Of a stretch of 64,000 nucleotides of DNA, positions 15,336 through 62,600 are shown piece after piece. A program made the translations under genes and the position numbers. This stretch comes from Terfezia claveryi. Lineage: Eukaryota; Ascomycota; Pezizomycetes; Pezizales; Pezizaceae. Every line of letters starts with the position of its first letter. The first letter of the stretch is position 1. The stretch lies in contig WHUX01000141.1 of NCBI GenBank assembly GCA_015179025.1, positions 62,001 through 126,000 of the forward strand. Reading direction: 5' to 3'. The notes beneath the pieces were generated by a model. The model was not told where the DNA came from, did no database searches, and was given only the letters and a program-made list of their open reading frames with translations.

Positions 15336-15574
15336 TGTAGGAAATACTCTTCCAATACATGTGCAACCATGTGAGTACGTCAACAACATATGGACATAGA
15401 GGCATGTGGATAAGAAGGCATATGACAAGCATGTGTGAATACGGAGGAGATATGTATATATAGACTGCTAGAACCCTTAAAGCAGAGATATAGATCAAGC
15501 AAGCAATACATCTCTCTTACAGATCAATCCCCAATATCTACGTTCATATATCCTAAGATCTCATAATCCTTACG
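15336..15574 (+). repeat. Copia1 5' LTR
   Basis: Starts TGTAGGAAATACTC and ends ATAATCCTTACG. A TATATATAG stretch about 85 bp before a purine-rich leader could serve as its promoter. Identical to the 3' LTR except that the latter has a duplicated ACATGTGCAACCATGTGAGT. Confidence 0.9.
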
Positions 15575-15587
15575 GGTTATGAGCCCG
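15573..15587 (+). other. Primer binding site: half-tRNA type, initiator tRNA-Met
   Basis: CGGGTTATGAGCCCG follows the LTR directly. It is the reverse complement of the anticodon stem-loop of eukaryotic initiator tRNA-Met (GGGCTCATAACCC), not of a tRNA 3' end. Drosophila copia and yeast Ty5 use the same cleaved-tRNA priming, so this element likely does as well. Confidence 0.75.
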
Positions 15588-18493: not shown

Positions 18494-19277
18494 TTATAGG
18501 AATTGTGGATAATGAGACAATACTCAAAGAATTCGAAGAAAAAATCAAGGAAAAAATTGAGCTTGAAAAACATGGGAATCTAGAGAAACTCCTAGGAATT
18601 GAGCTTAAGTAGAACAATACAAATACGGAAGTCATAATGACCCAAAAGGCACTTATAGAAACAATGGCCTCAAAATACCTCCTCTACGGCGAACTGCAAC
18701 ATAAGAATTCCTTACCCATTAATCTAGAAGTATACGGCGACTCTAATGACCATTTCGAAGATGCTAAGAAATATCAAGCACTTACAGGAGGTCTACTTTA
18801 TATTGCAAGAATGACCAGACCTGAGATATCTATCCATGTCAACCTTCTAGGATGGCGAGCATCTAAACCTTCCACAACAAATTATAGAGCTGCTTTAACT
18901 ATTCTCTAATATCTCAAGAACACCAAGCATTTAGGACTAATTCTATGCAAACCTACGGATTTACACCTCGTCATATATGCAGATGCATCCTACGGTGGTG
19001 AACAAGTGAGATCCCAAACAGGAGTACTCATGACTCTCGATGATCAACCAGTAGGATGGTACAGTCGCTGTCAGGATACTGTATCCTTGTCAATCATCGA
19101 AGTAGAATATATTGCTACATGTGAAGGAGCCAAAGATGCAGCTTGGGTACAACAACTCCTAGATGAACTTGGATTATCACTAAAACCTACGGTAAAAACA
19201 GATAGTGAAGGAACCTTCAACCTAGCTCATACCTCTCGCTGTTTAAGACAAACTAGGCATATTGAACATCGATACCA
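18494..19277 (+). pseudogene. Copia1 RT tail and RNase H, first part
   Basis: The sequence resumes after the place of the YVDD box (LIGIVDNETILKEF, then NLEKLLGIEL) and runs through TGGLLYIARMTRPEI, IYADASYGGE, SQTGVLMTLDDQPVGWYS, EVEYIATCEG and AAWVQQLLDELG to RHIEHRYH. These are the Copia RT end and RNase H. Stops at 18610 and 18907 interrupt it. The RNase H frame is cut at 19277 by the palindromic element and resumes at 24572. Confidence 0.85.
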
Positions 19278-19278
19278 T

Positions 19279-19496
19279 CAGGATAGAAATTTCTGTGCCG
19301 CAACGCCCCCTGCAGGCGCCCTGACGGACCACCTTGTACCTCTCCTGCCCTCTACGTTAGGTCACCCCGATGCCACTTCTGGCATATCAGGATATATATT
19401 TCTGTGCCGCAACGCCCGCTCCCGGCGCCCTGACGGACTATCTTCTACCTGACCCGCCTTATGCGTCAGGTCGCCCCGATGCCACAACACCATCAC
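19279..19496 (+). repeat. 109-bp tandem duplication at the FB1 left end
   Basis: CAGGATA..ATTTCTGTGCCGCAACGCCC followed by GGCGCCCTGACGGAC occurs at 19279 and again at 19388, a period of about 109 bp. GGCGCCCTGACG recurs once more near 19500, and related GGCGTCAGG motifs occur at the right end. Confidence 0.75.
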
Positions 19497-19694
19497 CAGG
19501 CGCCCTGACGATTGCCCTCTTCTAGCTGCGCACTCTAGGAACCCTAGCCCTTATATCGCTCGGGCGCCATGTCTTCCGAGGTACCGCCCTGGCGCCTTGT
19601 GTTCCGAGGTGCCACCGTGGTGCGTGTGTATATCCATGCCCTGGCACAACTACCTGATAGGTGGACCACTGTATGCACTCGGAGCATGGAGGTA

Positions 19695-19942
19695 CATCAG
19701 CAAGAAAAAAGTGGTATCGGGACACCAGGTGGTGTCTCCAGGAGACAGGGTTGTCTCTGGTGTCTTTTATGTCTTTTATGTCTTCTAGGTATCTCCTAAG
19801 TATCTCCCATGTGTCACCCAGTGTCTCCCAGTGTCTCCTGGAGACACTGGGAGACATTCTGCCAATCGTGGAGACACACCTTGTCTCCAGTGGCAATACT
19901 GTCTCTAGAGACACTGGAGACAAACTATTTTCGTTACTGATG
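19695..19942. mobile_element. 248-bp MITE inside the FB1 left arm
   Basis: Absent from the right arm, where CATGGAGGTGATAGCAGC is continuous. In the left arm the same words are separated by an insert with ends CATCAGCAAGAAAA and, inverted, CATCAGTAACGAAAA, flanked by TA (19693-19694, 19943-19944). The interior is full of GTCTCC/GGAGAC palindromes, including a perfect 25-bp one near 19840-19864. Confidence 0.7.
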
Positions 19943-20239
19943 TAATAGCAGCTATACATTGCAAGAACTATATACATTTGAATTTCTATATACATAGCTA
20001 AGCTATAGATGCACTTCGAATGAACCATTCTCTCATGCATCCCACTTGAACTCATCCTGCGCATATGCCTCTAAAAATCCTAGCAGTTCCCTGATCTGAG
20101 CCGTCTACAAAGTCGTTATCGCCATGCTTTGATCTAATAATATCCATATAGCTATTAACAACAGAACGCTGATATCGCGAGACTGCACATACCTAGAGCT
20201 ACCCAATTGCTAGCTGATGTAGTCATCCACTGCCATTAG

Positions 20240-21480
20240 CAATGCCTATTACTAGAGCAATTAGCTATGCGTTCCCATAAAGTCCGTGGATTTGCTGGTG
20301 AGTTCACGTACCTAGGTATGTCTACACATATAGATGGGGAGTATCTCGGGAGTGCACTTGCGGAGTCCTAAGAGCAATTAGCTATGCCTTCACATATAGT
20401 CCACTGGTTTTCTGGCGAGTTCACATACCTGGCTATGCCTTTGTCTGCGAATATAGATTAGGGATATATCGGAACTGCACTGGCAGAGTCCTAAGAGCAA
20501 TTAGCTATACATTCACATAGAGTCCGCTGGTTATCTAGCGAGTTCACGTACCTAGCTATGCCTTGCACTGGGGGAGTCCTAAGAGCAATTAGACATATAT
20601 TCACATAGAGTCCGCTGGTTTTCTGGCGAGTTCATGTACCTAGCTATCCCTGTGTCTGCGCATATAGATTGGGGATATATCGGAACTGCACTAGCGGAGT
20701 CCTAAAAGCAATTAGCTAGAGTCCGCTAGTTTTCTGGCCAGTTCACGTACCTAGCTATGCCTGTGTCTGCACATATAGATTAGGGATATATCGGAACTGC
20801 ACTGGCGGAGTCCTAAGAGCAATTAGGTATACATTCACATAGAGTCCGCTAGTTTTCTGGCGAGTTCACATACCTAGCTATGTCTTGCACTGGGAGAGTT
20901 CTAAGAGCAATTAGACATACATTCATATAGAGTCCACTGGTTTTCTGGTGAGTTCACGTACCTACTTAAGCTATGCCTGTGTCTGCGCATATAGATTGGG
21001 GATATATCGGAACTGCATTAGCGGAGTCCTAAGAGCAATTAGCTAGAGTCCACTGGTTTTCTGGCCAGTTCACATACCTGGCTATGCCTGTGTCTGCGCA
21101 TATAGATTGGGGATGTATCGGAACTGCACTGGCGGAGTTCTAAGAGCAATTAGGTATACATTCACATAGAGTCCACTGGTTTTTTGGCAAGTTCACGTAC
21201 CTAGCTATGTCTTGCACTGGGGGAGTCCTAAGAGCAATTAGACATACATTCACATAGAGTCCGCTGGTTTTCTGGCGAGTTCACATACCTAGCTATGCCT
21301 GTGTCTGCGCATATAGATTGGGGATATATCGGAACTGCACTGGCAGAGTCCTAAGAGCAATTAGCTATACATTCACATAGAGTCCGCTGGTTTTCTGGCG
21401 AGTTCACGTACCTAGCTAGCTATGTCTCCGCATATAGATGGGGGATATCTCGAGAGTGCACTGGGGGAGTCCTAACCTCA
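20240..21480 (+). repeat. FB1 left-arm satellite array
   Basis: About twelve units of alternating roughly 90 and 120 bp. Shared words are GAGCAATTAGCTAT, TTCACATAGAGTCCGCTGG, CTGGCGAGTTCACGTACCTA. The longer unit adds GCGCATATAGATTGGGGATA and ATCGGAACTGCACTGG. The array is longer than its inverted partner at 23155-23935. Confidence 0.85.
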
Positions 21481-21824
21481 GCTTGACCTGTCGCTGACTG
21501 GCTGGTTGAGTTACCTGTGCAAAGAGGGGGCACACGTGCTCTCGTGTTATGTTTGTTCATGCAAGCCTGGAAATATGTGTCGGTTGACGCGGCCGACAAA
21601 TATGTGTGATTGGCGGGAAGGCAGATTGGCGCACGCTGGTATGACAAATCAGCACAATGTATAATTGGCGGGAAGGCAGATTGGCGCACGCTGGTGTGAC
21701 AGATCAGCACATGCATGTTTCAGGCCACATATACCTGCCAGCCATGAGATTACCGAAGTGGGTAATAGGTATGGAAGAGGAGCCCTCATGGCAGGCTTGT
21801 AAATATGGACTTGTTTATGCAAAA

Positions 21825-22800
21825 AACTTATGCTTTGAGACTTATATATATATATATGCGAGAAACTCATGCTTTTCGAGGCTTATATATATATATGCGG
21901 GAAACTCGTACTTTGGAGATATATATATATATATATGCGAGAAACTCGTGCTTTTGAGGCTTATATATATATGTGAGAGAAACTTATGCTTTTCGAGGCT
22001 TCTAGATATATATGCGAGACACTCGTGCTTTTGTGACTTATATATATATATGCGAGAAACTCATGCTTTTCGAGGCTTCTAAATATATATGCGAGAAACT
22101 CATGCTTTTCGAGGCTTCTAGATATATATGCGAGAAACTCATGCTTTTGAGGCTTATTAGTATATATGCGGGAAACTCGTACTTTGGAGATATATATATA
22201 CTCATGCTTTTCGAGGCTTCTAGATATATATGCGAGAAACTCATGCTTTTGAGGCTTATTAGTATATATGCGGGAAACTCGTGCTTTGAGACTTATATAT
22301 ATACTCATGCTTTTCGAGGCTTCCAGATGAAACTAATGATGAGTTTCTCGCATATATATATATAAGTCTCAAAGTATGAGTTTCTCGCATATATATCTAG
22401 AAGCCTCGAAAAGCATGAGTATATATATATCTCCAAAGCATGAGTTTCCCGCATATATACTAATAAGCCTCAAAAGCATGAGTTTCTCGCATATATATCT
22501 AGAAGCCTCGAAAAGCATGAGTTTCTCGCATATATATTTAGAAGCCTCAAAAAGCATGAGTTTCTCGCATATATATATATAAGTCACAAAAGCACGAGTG
22601 TCTCGCATATATATCTAGAAGCCTCGAAAAGCATGAGTTTCTCTTACATATATATATAAGCCTCAAAAGCACGAGTTTCTCGCATATATATATATATATA
22701 TCTCCAAAGCACGAGTTTCTCCCATATATATATATAAGCCTCGAAAAGCATGAGTTTCTCGTATATATATATATATAAGTCTCAAAGCATGAGTTTCTCG
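21825..22800. repeat. FB1 central AT-rich minisatellite, inverted at about 22330
   Basis: Units of about 40-60 bp with consensus TATATATGCGAGAAACTCAT followed by GCTTTTCGAGGCTT on the left, and the reverse complement on the right of about 22330. Periodic open frames on both strands (repeating SFSHIYLEASKS and similar) are by-products of the repeat. Confidence 0.85.
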
Positions 22801-23154
22801 CATAAACAAGTCCATATTTACAAGCCTGCCATGAGGGCTCCTCTTCCATACCTATTACCTACTTCGGTAATCTCACGGCTAGCGGGCATATGTGGCCTGA
22901 AACATGCATGTGCTGATCTGTCACACCAGCGTGCGCCAATCTGCCTTCCCGCTAATCACACATTGTGCTGATCTGTCACACCAGCGTGCGCCAATCTGCC
23001 TTCCCGCCAATCACACATATTTGTCGGCCGCGTCAACCGACACATATTTCTAGGCTTGCGTGAATGAACATAACACGAGAGCACGTGCGCCCCCTCTTTG
23101 CACAGGTAACTCAACCAGCCAGTCGGCGGCAGGTCAAGCTGAGGTTAGGACCCT

Positions 23155-23935
23155 CCCAGTGCACTCTCGAGATATCCCCCATCTATATGCGGAGACATAG
23201 CTAGCTAGGTACGTGAACTCGCCAGAAAACCAGCGGACTCTATGTGAATGTATAGCTAATTGCTCTTAGAACTCCGCCAGTGCAGTTCCGATATATCCCC
23301 AATCTATATGCGCAGACACAGGTATAGCTAGGTACGTGAACTCGCCAGAAAACCAGCGGACTCTATGTGAATGTATGTCTAATTGCTCTTAGGACTCCCC
23401 CAGTGCAAGACATAGCTAGGTACGTGAACTCGCCAGAAAACCAGCGGACTCTATGTGAATGTATAGCTAATTGCTCTTAGAACTCCGCCAGTGCAGTTCC
23501 GATATATCCCCAATCTATATGCGCAGACACAGGTATAGCTAGGTACGTGAACTCGCCAGAAAACCAGCGGACTCTATGTGAATGTATGTCTAATTGCTCT
23601 TAGGACTCCCCCAGTGCAAGGCATAGCTAGGTACGTGAACTCGCCAGATAACCAGCGGACTCTATGTGAATGTATAGCTAATTGCTCTTAGGACTCCGCC
23701 AGTGCAGTTCCGATATATCCCCAATCTATATGCGCAGACACAGGCATAGCCAGGTACGTGAACTCGCCAGAAAACCAGCGGACTGTATGTGAAGGCATAG
23801 CTAATTGCTCTTAGGACTCCGCAAGTGCACTCCCGAGATATTCCCCATCTATATGCGTAGACATACCTAGGTACGTGAACTCGCCAGCAAATCCACGGAC
23901 TTTATGGGAACGCATAGCTAATTGCTCTAGTAATA
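23155..23935 (-). repeat. FB1 right-arm satellite array
   Basis: Inverted copy of the left-arm satellite with about seven units starting GTACGTGAACTCGCCAG, spaced alternately about 90 and 120 bp. Units are more uniform than in the left arm. Confidence 0.85.
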
Positions 23936-24571
23936 GGCATTGCTAATGGCAGTGGATGACTACATCAGCCAGCAATTGGGTAGCTCTAGGTATGTGCAGT
24001 CTCGCGATATCAGCGTTCTGTTGTTAATAGCTATATGGATATTATTAGATCAAAGCACGGCGATAACGACTTTGCAGACGGCTCAGATCAGGGAACCGCT
24101 AGGATTTTTGGAGGCATATACGCAGGATGAGTTCAAGTGGGATGCATGAGAGAATGGTTCGTTGGAAGTGCATCTATAGCTCAGCTATGTATATAGAAAT
24201 TCAAACGTACATAGTTCTTGCAATGTATAGCTGCTATCACCTCCATGCTCTGAGTGCACACAGTGGTTTGCCTATCAGGTAGTTGTGCCAGGGCGTCGAT
24301 GTTAAAGACACGCATCACGGCGGCACCTCAGAAAACACGGCGCCAGGGCGGTACCTTCCAAGACATAGCGTCAGAGCTCGTTCCTGATGATTGTGCAGGA
24401 ACGTCAGGGTCAGGTGGAGGACCATGTGGTGCCAGCGTCAGCAGGCAGCCTGTGAAGAGCCGGCGTCGGGGAGACAGAGAAACAGCGGAGAGCGCCGGTA
24501 ACTGGCAGTTTGTCATTAGTGGCACCGAAGGCGTCAGGCGCCATAAAGGCAAACTATATTCCTTTGTGATG

Positions 24572-24720
24572 ACCACTATCTACGCCAACAAGTACAAGCA
24601 GAAAAATTAGCTATAACAACTATCCCAGGCAAGGAAAATCCAGCGGATATTCTTACCAAGATTACGCCCATGGTTACCATTAAAAAATGGCAAGACCGGT
24701 GGATGAGATTGGCAGAGTAG
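24572..24720 (+). pseudogene. Copia1 RNase H, C-terminal end
   Basis: After the FB1 element the frame resumes (HYLRQQVQAEKLAI, then PGKENPADILTK, KKWQDRWMRLAE, stop TAG at 24718). GKENPADILTK is the conserved C-terminal block of Copia polyproteins. A polypurine tract AAAGGAGGG abuts the 3' LTR at 24739-24747. Confidence 0.85.
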
Positions 24721-24747: not shown

Positions 24748-25006
24748 TGTAGGAAATACTCTTCCAATACATGTGCAACCATGTGAGTACATGTGCAACC
24801 ATGTGAGTACGTCAACAACATATGGACATAGAGGCATGTGGATAAGAAGGCATATGACAAGCATGTGTGAATACGGAGGAGATATGTATATATAGACTGC
24901 TAGAACCCTTAAAGCAGAGATATAGATCAAGCAAGCAATACATCTCTCTTACAGATCAATCCCCAATATCTACGTTCATATATCCTAAGATCTCATAATC
25001 CTTACG
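24748..25006 (+). repeat. Copia1 3' LTR
   Basis: 259 bp, same as the 5' LTR plus one extra 20-bp tandem copy (ACATGTGCAACCATGTGAGT near 24770-24809). Ends CCTTACG followed by the GATGC target duplication. Confidence 0.9.
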
Positions 25007-25048
25007 GATGCCCTCAAGCTCATCGTCAAAGGTAGCACTAGACGACAT
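25007..25048 (-). pseudogene. Start of the split kinase gene (first 12-13 codons)
   Basis: On the minus strand, ATG at 25048-25046 opens MSSSATFDDELEG. After removing Copia1 and one GATGC copy, this frame continues without a shift into the left flank (IESFEDSENLSAAGYGG at 15334 and below) and on to the kinase N-lobe. The continuity of frame across the exact TSD is strong evidence that Copia1 jumped into this gene. Sequence beyond 25048 would be the promoter and 5' UTR. Confidence 0.8.
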
Positions 25049-26424: not shown

Positions 26425-26526
26425 GGCAAGATGGCCGAGTTGGTTATGGCGCCAGGTTAAGGATCGCATCCTTAGCACCACATCCTGGTAGGGAAACCTG
26501 CGTGGGTTCAAGTCCCACTCTTGTCA
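26425..26526 (+). tRNA. tRNA-Leu(AAG) with a 20-nt intron
   Basis: Folds as a class II tRNA: acceptor GGCAAGA / TCTTGTC with one G-U pair, D stem GCC/GGC, anticodon stem CCAGG/CCTGG with anticodon AAG at 26459-26461, long variable arm (TAGGGAAACCTGC) and T arm GTGGG-TTCAAGT-CCCAC. An intron of 20 nt (26463-26482) lies one base after the anticodon, the canonical position. The discriminator is A at 26526, as needed for leucine. A T-rich Pol III terminator follows (TTTTTT, 26530-26535). The A and B boxes are intact, so it should be functional. Confidence 0.9.
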
Positions 26527-57237: not shown

Positions 57238-57532
57238 TGTTGAAATGAGGGTAATAGGACAACGCAGGATAAGCTGACAGTAGGATAAGCTGACAGTAGG
57301 ATAAGCTGACGGCAGGGTAAGCTGACGGCAGGATGGGTCGGTGAGAAATGATGAGGGATATCTATATTTGGGATGTTAGCAATGGGTATTTAAGAGCGAA
57401 GGATTTCTCTACTTTTATATTGAATTAAGCAAGCGGCTTCTCTCATAATATATACGAATATATCTCTCTCTCTTTCTCTCATATACTATATTATCCTCAC
57501 GAACGAGTGAACGACGTAGAACGATTTCTACA
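57238..57532 (+). repeat. Copia2 5' LTR
   Basis: Starts TGTTGAAATGAGGG, ends GATTTCTACA. Contains three tandem GGATAAGCTGACAGTA-like words and a TATTTAAGAG promoter-like stretch. The next bases TGGTAGCAACACG (57533-57545) are the primer site, complementary to a tRNA 3' end in CCA; the tRNA is not identified. Confidence 0.9.
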
Positions 57533-57554
57533 TGGTAGCAACACGTCAGTTTAT

Positions 57555-61500: not shown

Positions 61501-61689
61501 AGCACATCCGAAGGCATCACCACTTCATCCGAGAATGCGCAGAAGAGGGGAGCGTGACAGTGCACTGGTCCCGGGCGAGGAAATCCTGCAGATATGCTAA
61601 CAAAAGTAGTGACAGGACCGAGGTTGACCAAGTTGAAGGAACAAGCAGGAATGACAGATTCGGAGGGCGTTGTCCCATTAGGAGGGCGT
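58542..61689 (+). pseudogene. Copia2 pol: protease, integrase, RT, RNase H
   Basis: Protease remnant WVDSCSSVHITNN (the active site DSG has Cys for Gly). Integrase in the frame 58866-59990: HERYGH and CEQC finger, D in LLHSDLCGPF, D in RTDWGGEFNS, E in VVAERANRTI, all catalytic residues kept. RT: DPKRFKARLTARGF, QYDIEGAFLNG, LYGTKQAAHNWN, VVHVDD (Copia normally has YVDD). RNase H: DIFCDAGEEKLEEKATSG, STEAEYIALSMG, and the end block PADMLTKVVTGP. A TGA at 59988, frameshifts near 60290, 60722, 61490 and 61570 break the frame. A purine tract GGAGGGCG abuts the 3' LTR. Confidence 0.88.
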
Positions 61690-61983
61690 GTTGAAATGAG
61701 GGTAATAGGACAACGCAGGATAAGCTGACAGTAGGATAAGCTGACAGTAGGATAAGCTGACGGCAGGGTAAGCTGACGGCAGGATGGGTCGGTGAGAAAT
61801 GATGAGGGATATCTATATTTGGGATGTTAGCAATGGGTATTTAAGAGCGAAGGATTTCTCTACTTTTATGTTGAATTAAGCAAGCGGCTTCTCTCATAAT
61901 ATATACGAATATATCTCTCTCTCTTTCTCTCATATACTATATTATCCTCACGAATGAGTGAACGGCGTAGAACGATTTCTACA
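61689..61983 (+). repeat. Copia2 3' LTR
   Basis: 295 bp, same ends as the 5' LTR. The three differences are A/G in TTTTATATTG, C/T in CGAACGAG and A/G in GAACGACG. Confidence 0.9.
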
Positions 61984-61988
61984 TATAT

Positions 61989-62600
61989 ATATACATAGAA
62001 ATCATGCATTCGCGGCTTATCTATATACATGAAATTCGTGCATTCGCGGCTTACATATATTCATGAAATTCATGCATGCACGGCCTCTATATTGTGTATT
62101 TGCGGCCTCTATATATATATGTAAATCTGGCATTCGCGGCTTCTATATATACATGGAAATCATGCATTCGCGGCTTATACATATACATAGAAGTCATGCA
62201 TTCGCGGCTTATATATATACATGAAATTCGTGCATTCGCGGCTTACATATATTCATGGAATTCATGCACCCACGGCCTCTATATTGTGTATTCGCGGCCT
62301 CTATATATATATGTAAATCTGGCATTCGCGCCTCTATATATACATAGATTCGATATATACTAGCCGCGAATGCACGAACTCCATGTATATATATAAGCCG
62401 CGAATGCATGATTTCCATGTATATATATAAGCCGCGAATGCACGAATTCCATATATATATATAGCCCGCGAATGCATGATTTCCATGTATATATATAAGC
62501 CGCGAATGCACGAACTCCATGTATATATATAAGCCGCGAATGCACGAATTCCATGTATATATATAAGCCCGAATGCACGAATTTCATGTATATATGGGCG
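61989..62600. repeat. FB2 minisatellite array, inverted near 62355
   Basis: Units of about 36-45 bp: CATGCATTCGCGGCTTATAT with TATACATGAAATT on the left, and CCGCGAATGCACGAATTCCA with TGTATATATATAAG on the right. More units of the left orientation lie at 57086-57237, before Copia2. Confidence 0.8.

What the first reader, a model, noticed from the sequence alone, without database searches (positions are those of the whole stretch)
19278..24571. A 5.3-kb non-coding giant palindrome built of satellites, inserted in Copia1
Two arms of roughly 2-2.7 kb are inverted copies around 22330. They contain a 90/120-bp satellite and an AT-rich minisatellite in mirror order, outer GGCGCCCTGACG repeats and no transposase. 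The insertion splits RNase H codons with a 3-4 bp duplication, so it behaves as one mobile unit. The arms differ in copy number, substitutions and one MITE, which argues against a mirror artefact. I do not know a named fungal family with this plan.
Basis: partly seen in the sequence, partly recalled or inferred. Interest (0 to 1): 0.75.

Follow-up and report, generated by a model that had tools for sequence, protein, structure and literature searches.

The report
Palindromic jumping DNA in a fungus
A 5.3-kb stretch of fungal DNA that reads almost the same on both strands is a gene-less jumping element, present in many copies, that carries the end signals of a known fungal transposon type (Plavaka) and is probably moved by its enzyme.

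Summary
The palindrome is real and mobile. The unit is 19276-24571 (5296 bp), inserted in a Copia element. Fifteen examined copies (window included) carry both ends; 14 of 15 have a 2-bp target duplication. The 30-base undisturbed target occurs at 34 other places, 21 exact. CATCA..TGATG ends with 2-3 bp duplications define PlavakaB (PMC12730594, passages). A 10.9-kb relative sharing the ends encodes a Plavaka transposase piece; of 23 such transposase loci, 6 lie 2.8-3.6 kb inside one of 40 left ends (0.06 expected). So this is a non-autonomous PlavakaB derivative whose interior is an inverted duplication of satellite arrays. The outer arm block keeps left/right identity across copies (29 of 34 arms), pointing to one founder palindrome; the inner block does not, and two near-identical copies differ by an inverted centre, pointing to exchange between arms. 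Fold-backs with satellite arms are known (Tetris, Galileo); none of my seven literature searches listed a Plavaka one. Transposition and the transposase pairing are inferred.

The parts
19274..19275 (.). left target-site duplication AC
19276..24571 (+). whole non-autonomous PlavakaB fold-back element, 5296 bp, ends CATCAGGATA...CCTTTGTGATG
   Evidence: same ends in 15 examined copies with both ends (L038 and L040 each with one changed tip base)
19276..19556 (+). unique left end (LEu): 109-bp tandem repeat (19277-19485) and CTGACG/CGTCAG subterminal motifs; not copied on the right
19557..19690 (-). outer part of left arm, ~83% inverted copy of 24244-24370
19695..19942 (+). nested 248-bp MITE, CATCAGCAAG...TTACTGATG, TA duplication (19693-19694/19943-19944); absent from the right arm
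19939..20252 (-). left copy of single-copy subterminal block SUB (96% to 23930-24243); its outermost bases overlap the end of the MITE
20254..21475 (-). left satellite array, ~88/111/123-bp units (about 10)
21480..21815 (-). left copy of PRE block with a doubled 55-bp repeat
21816..22328 (-). left AT-rich 38/39-bp minisatellite
22329..22338 (.). centre of the palindrome
22339..22804 (+). right AT-rich 38/39-bp minisatellite
22805..23140 (+). right PRE block with a doubled 55-bp repeat
23145..23928 (+). right satellite array, ~88/123-bp units (about 6)
23930..24243 (+). right SUB block
24244..24370 (+). outer part of right arm
24371..24571 (+). unique right end (REu); its outer 179 bp are 90% identical to the right end of the transposase-bearing C155 element
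24572..24573 (.). right target-site duplication AC
15356..15575 (+). left LTR stretch of the host Copia, identical to 24788-25007
24788..25007 (+). right LTR stretch of the host Copia (220/220 identical)

Best explanation
A family of gene-less cut-and-paste transposons moved in trans by a PlavakaB-type (CMCT clade) transposase. The enzyme is thought to recognise the two unlike ends (LEu and REu, with CATCA/TGATG tips and CGTCAG subterminal motifs) and to insert the unit with a 2-bp duplication. The interior is a large palindrome, probably made once when the right-hand block (SUB, 123-bp satellite, PRE, 39-bp AT minisatellite) was duplicated in inverse behind the left end. That founder then spread by transposition. 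Arrays grow and shrink in each arm, and arm-to-arm recombination flips or homogenises the centre. Shown: dispersed copies, ends, 2-bp duplications, unoccupied target, shared ends with transposase-bearing relatives, left/right identity of the outer block, an inverted centre between two assembled copies. Inferred: trans-mobilisation, the single founding event, the recombination step, and binding of the motif.
For: 230 genome matches, 31 of 947 candidates scored. 15 copies with both ends, 2-bp duplication in 14 of 15, 3-bp in 0 of 15, p about 2e-16 against 1/16; a 16th (L045), with a shorter left end at the second 109-bp unit, also shows TA/TA by inspection. Unoccupied 30-base target: 34 matches with up to 3 mismatches, 21 exact, reversed-pattern control 0. 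PlavakaB diagnosis in print: 2 or 3 bp duplications, CATCA..TGATG (passage). Plavaka domain (profile 18-100 of 325) inside the C155 left-to-right-end interval, E 2.6e-14. Of 23 transposase loci at 75% identity or more, 6 (5 of 22 without C155 itself, which I had picked for its ends) lie 2.8-3.6 kb inside one of 40 left ends, all antisense; 0.06 expected. Same block order in 17 copies with both arms (the left PRE of L038 seen only as a split match; L047 has REu in place of LEu). SUB: nearest relative is a same-side arm of another copy in 29 of 34 arms, own opposite arm in 2 of 34; 4 sites with different left and right majorities, 3 strong (14-15 of 17 against 18 of 18) and 1 weak (10 of 17 against 15 of 18). 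PRE: own arm nearest, ties counted, in 14 of 34, 0 such sites. L041/L042: the central 1100-bp piece aligns inverted at 99.8%. Motif CGTCAG/CTGACG: 7 in the two unique ends, 0.26 expected (mononucleotide shuffle, motif chosen after looking), 0 in the 4.3-kb core.
Against: No transposition was observed. The C155 left end is only 84% like the window's over 108 bp, so the true partner may be another PlavakaB member. 17 of the 23 transposase loci are not near a scored left end, though both lists are capped. L041 has no matching duplication. Arms within a copy are on average closer than arms paired at random (SUB p 0.0008; PRE 0 of 10000), so some within-copy homogenisation or shared age affects the outer block too, and 5 of 34 SUB arms are nearest to an opposite-side arm. 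The centre inversion could be an assembly choice.
Confidence: 0.85

Rival explanations
1. Local inverted duplication or assembly artefact at this one locus.
For: Several other copies run off contig ends (C240, C412, C680 match from base 1), as expected where palindromes break assemblies; no reads to test.
Against: Dispersed copies with the same ends and a 2-bp duplication in 14 of 15; unoccupied target at 34 places.
Confidence: 0.02
2. A fold-back element of another superfamily (Mutator, P/Galileo, hAT).
For: A passage in PMC4079207 says most fold-back elements seem to belong to Mutator.
Against: 2-bp duplications instead of 7-10 bp (those lengths recalled); CATCA..TGATG is the PlavakaB signature; co-location with Plavaka transposase.
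Confidence: 0.03
3. The palindrome forms anew in each copy (repeated inverted duplication of the right arm), so family likeness is convergent.
For: PRE has no left/right diagnostic sites and own arm nearest in 14 of 34, ties counted; a single-arm relative L049 exists; RE-RE copy L047 has right-type states on both arms at all 4 sites; SUB arms within a copy are closer than random pairs (p 0.0008).
Against: SUB keeps left/right majority sites across copies, nearest relative is a same-side arm in 29 of 34 and the own arm in only 2 of 34.
Confidence: 0.1
4. The satellite arms are functional cargo: multiplied transposase-binding sites, as in Galileo, or a source of hairpin RNA that affects silencing of the parent.
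For: Array-filled arms occur in all 17 both-arm copies read. Galileo long TIRs carry multiple transposase binding sites (PMC3688188, title and start of abstract in a listing).
Against: The candidate subterminal motif is absent from the 4.3-kb core; left and right array lengths are not significantly correlated (rho 0.40, p 0.11, n 17); no expression data.
Confidence: 0.12

Closest known systems
PlavakaB transposons (CMCT clade, fungi; PMC12730594, passages seen)
   Same: CATCA..TGATG termini, 2-bp duplications, shared ends with transposase-bearing copies in this genome
   Different: No transposase or other recognised gene; interior replaced by a satellite palindrome. A passage reports Plavaka families reconstructed from Agaricomycotina; this genome's nearest named transposase relatives are from Terfezia claveryi, a Pezizomycete (class recalled).
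Tetris fold-back transposon (Drosophila virilis; PMC4079207, passages seen)
   Same: Non-autonomous, long inverted arms with internal tandem repeats, related satellite-like arrays, no conserved ORFs
   Different: Three structurally complete copies and no autonomous partner reported; here 15 copies with both ends and a candidate partner. Here the outermost ends are unlike each other and the palindrome sits inside them.
Galileo (P superfamily, Drosophila; PMC2775673 abstract and outline, PMC3688188 listing)
   Same: Long inverted arms; chimeric copies after recombination (compare RE-RE copy L047)
   Different: Different superfamily and duplication length (recalled). In the C155 relative the 1.75 kb read next to the right end lacks the arms.
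Helentron elements carrying satellite arrays (oyster; PMC7492417, listing only)
   Same: Mobile elements that disperse short satellite-like arrays
   Different: Rolling-circle elements without duplications (recalled); whether arrays there are palindromic was not seen

Membership tests
PlavakaB | termini 5'-CATCA..TGATG-3' | tested here: met
   13 of 15 copies exact at both tips; L038 ends TGATA, L040 starts CATTA; definition
PlavakaB | 2 or 3 bp target-site duplication | tested here: met
   2 bp in 14 of 15 copies
PlavakaB | encodes a Plavaka transposase | tested here: not met
   no family over cut-off in any of 9 frames of 90 aa or more. It is therefore filed as a non-autonomous derivative, not as a full member.
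PlavakaB | shares ends with transposase-bearing elements of the same genome | tested here: met
   (C155: left end 84%, right end 90%)
PlavakaB | transposase falls in the PlavakaB clade of the phylogeny | not tested
   only a 262-aa N-terminal piece was read; no tree built
Fold-back elements | long inverted arms, often of tandem repeats, with little between | tested here: met
Fold-back elements | inverted repeats reach the very termini | tested here: not met
   outer ~280 and ~200 bp are unlike apart from the 5-bp tips; of the copies fetched only the RE-RE copy L047 is symmetrical to the tips
MULE or P/hAT fold-backs | 7-10 bp target-site duplication (recalled) | tested here: not met
   2 bp in 14 of 15, third base matches in 0 of 15
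Helitron/Helentron | no target-site duplication (recalled) | tested here: not met

The most novel reading that the evidence does not exclude
A new architectural class: a CMCT/Plavaka fold-back in which two unlike transposase-recognised ends enclose a kilobase-scale satellite palindrome that behaves as an invertible, self-recombining module. Its centre flips, and exchange between copies swaps whole ends (RE-RE at C136; an LE..LE pair at C190), so the family acts as a dispersed engine of chromosome rearrangement in this fungus.
Probability: 0.25. Interest if true: 0.6.

Novelty: new variant of a known kind. Interest (0 to 1): 0.45.

Why it matters
It suggests that fold-back structure arose in the Plavaka/CMCT lineage of fungi, with a candidate partner transposase in the same genome, which was missing for Tetris. 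Because outer and inner arm segments behave differently across copies, the family lets one ask how long palindromes form, persist and exchange in a eukaryote. The palindromes are also likely causes of assembly breaks and possibly of inversions in this genome.

Tried and rejected
First considered a 4-bp duplication ACCA, which would suggest superfamilies with 3-4 bp duplications (Academ, Sola; recalled); rejected when 15 copies showed CA belongs to the element. Considered that the C31 interval (18 kb) is an autonomous copy because a Plavaka domain lies inside; left open, since one search lists no C155-type match at that place and it may be a nested insertion. Considered that C155 carries a single arm next to its right end; rejected for the 1.75 kb read: only the last 179 bp match, the rest holds a DUF6532-like coding region. 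Looked in the fetched flanks for a reciprocal partner of the RE-RE copy; none found, and one C190 flank could not be read. The host could not be named: none of the 54 hits of the Copia piece named an organism; the transposase piece hit four Terfezia claveryi proteins at 56-79% identity over 45-81% of the query, behind three better-scoring unnamed hits. Literature: seven searches listed no Plavaka or fungal fold-back of this plan; three lists were cut (20 of 64 papers, 20 of 466, 20 of 277) and one search listed 10 of 11. That says only that these lists of a held open-access library did not show one; Repbase was not available.
Full report
Observation. The window stretch holds a large imperfect palindrome: arms of 1206 and 780 nt at 96% complementarity around about 22330. 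Each side carries three repeat arrays (a satellite of ~88/111/123-bp units, a 55-bp doublet, a 38/39-bp AT-rich minisatellite) in mirror order. It lies inside a Copia element with LTR stretches 15356-15575 and 24788-25007, identical over 220 bp, with an apparent 20-bp tandem-copy difference beside them. The two arms of the window copy differ by about 4-5% (94.6% identity including gaps; SUB 4.1%, PRE 5.1%), more than the LTRs (0 of 220; rough 95% upper bound 1.4%). So the palindrome most likely existed before this Copia inserted, and it arrived ready-made. This is an inference that assumes similar rates.

Copies and ends. The window lies in a 72.56-Mb, 794-contig genome (G000). A search with the element gave 230 matches, with 31 of 947 candidates scored, so counts are lower bounds. 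I fetched 20 further loci. Fifteen copies (14 of the 20 plus the window) hold both ends; the other six are L043 (no right end in the stretch), L045 (shorter left end), L047 (two right ends) and L048-L050 (right end only in the stretch). The 15 pairs of ends fixed the tips as CATCAGGATA and CCTTTGTGATG; L038 and L040 each have one changed tip base. The flanking two bases agree in 14 of 15 copies and a third base in 0 of 15. The exception is L041. L045 uses the second 109-bp unit as its left end and has TA on both sides (by inspection). The 30-base target without insert occurs 34 times in the genome with up to 3 mismatches, 21 of them exact, and the reversed control pattern 0 times; that these places are Copia copies is presumed from the sequence, not checked one by one.

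What moves it. A 2025 survey gives PlavakaB termini as CATCA..TGATG with 2 or 3 bp duplications, and places Plavaka with EnSpm and Transib in a CMCT clade (PMC12730594, passages seen). A left-end probe gave 66 matches (40 of 42 candidates scored; 40 sites after merging second repeat units by hand) and a right-end probe 40 matches (40 of 54 scored). Some left-right pairs are 10-18 kb apart. Inside one (C155:40273-51222) I read 4.5 kb and 1.75 kb. The first holds an open 262-aa frame that ends in the N-terminal part of the Plavaka domain (E 2.6e-14). The second ends in 179 bp that match the window's right end at 90%, tip TGATG, behind a DUF6532-like coding region (E 9.6e-6). A search with the 262-aa piece gave 149 matches (146 of 393 candidates scored). 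Of 23 places at 75% identity or more, six lie within 5 kb inside one of 40 left ends, all antisense, at 2829-3572 bp; 0.06 are expected if places were random. Without C155 itself, which I had picked for its ends, it is five of 22; the other 17 are not near a scored left end. The Plavaka family is abundant here in general (127 matches, 123 of 598 candidates scored). In the stretches read, the palindrome shares its right end and little else with the C155 element: the usual relation of a non-autonomous element to its partner. That the partner moves it is inferred.

How the palindrome arose. L049 (C159) has the right end, SUB, satellite, PRE and AT minisatellite once, at 81% identity and without a mirror arm in the 4.7 kb read inside its right end: either a single-arm precursor or a remnant. 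In SUB, mean distance is 3.1% between same-side arms of different copies, 3.5% between the two arms of one copy and 3.8% between opposite arms of different copies (17 copies). The nearest relative is a same-side arm in 29 of 34 cases and the own partner in 2 of 34. Four sites have different left and right majorities, three of them strong (L047 and L049 left out of that count). In PRE, nearer the centre, there is no such site, the partner is nearest (ties counted) in 14 of 34, and 27 of 34 arms tie between sides. Against a pure founder model, arms within a copy are closer than arms paired at random (SUB p 0.0008; PRE 0 of 10000 shuffles). The simplest account is one founder palindrome, copied by transposition, with exchange between arms stronger towards the centre. 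L041 and L042 agree at about 99% on both sides of a centre that runs the other way; a 1100-bp piece spanning it aligns inverted at 99.8%. L047 has right ends on both sides, right-type SUB states on both arms at all four sites and no matching duplication, as expected from recombination between copies rather than transposition. C190 has two left ends facing each other 13 kb apart, not read through.

Decay and possible roles. Differences from the majority are mostly C>T/G>A (182 of 230 in SUB, 135 of 189 in PRE), with about three times the number per site at CpG (SUB 63 on 22 sites against 119 on 119; PRE 67 on 40 against 68 on 141; L049 left out, and shared changes are counted more than once). 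This fits methylation or RIP-like damage. The motif CGTCAG/CTGACG occurs 7 times in the two unique ends (0.26 expected from mononucleotide shuffles; the motif was chosen after looking) and never in the 4.3-kb core; 3 times in the C155 right end. It is a candidate transposase site, and its absence from the core speaks against the arms being extra binding sites. Array lengths of the two arms are not significantly correlated (rho 0.40, p 0.11, 17 copies).

Comparison. Fold-back transposons with satellite arms are known: Tetris in Drosophila virilis (PMC4079207, passages) and Galileo, whose copies caused an inversion with exchanged duplications (PMC2775673, abstract and outline). What differs here is the superfamily, the candidate partner, the copy number, and the plan: unlike outer ends around an internal palindrome. 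I call it a new variant of a known kind.

Noticed in passing
window 19695-19942: A 248-bp MITE in the left arm has CATCA..TGATG ends and a TA duplication, so it looks like a second PlavakaB derivative nested in the first.
   Followed up: partly
window 61984-62595: Another AT-rich minisatellite that also matches itself in inverted orientation; parts are 73-76% like the palindrome's AT array.
   Followed up: no
window 57238-57533 and 61689-61984: Direct repeats at 99% flanking integrase and reverse-transcriptase ORFs: a second young Copia-like LTR element.
   Followed up: no
window 43422-44048/55770-56395 and 46583-47196/52330-52943: Two nested pairs of direct repeats (93% and 90%) around protease/gag/integrase ORFs: one LTR element apparently inserted in another.
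   Followed up: no
window 26425-26526: tRNA match in Rfam (102 nt, perhaps intron-bearing) that ARAGORN in bacterial mode did not report.
   Followed up: no
L047 (C136:11607-17117): Symmetrical RE-RE copy without target duplication, a likely recombination product.
   Followed up: partly
G000 C190:317578 (+) and C190:330727 (-): Two left ends facing each other 13 kb apart, each followed by an inverted SUB block: possible LE-LE chimera with a nested insert.
   Followed up: no
L049:4332-4682: Integrase-like reading frame next to the single arm in C159, recognised by eye only.
   Followed up: no
L052:328-579: DUF6532 match (E 9.6e-6) beside the right end of the transposase-bearing C155 element: a possible second gene of this Plavaka lineage.
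   Followed up: no
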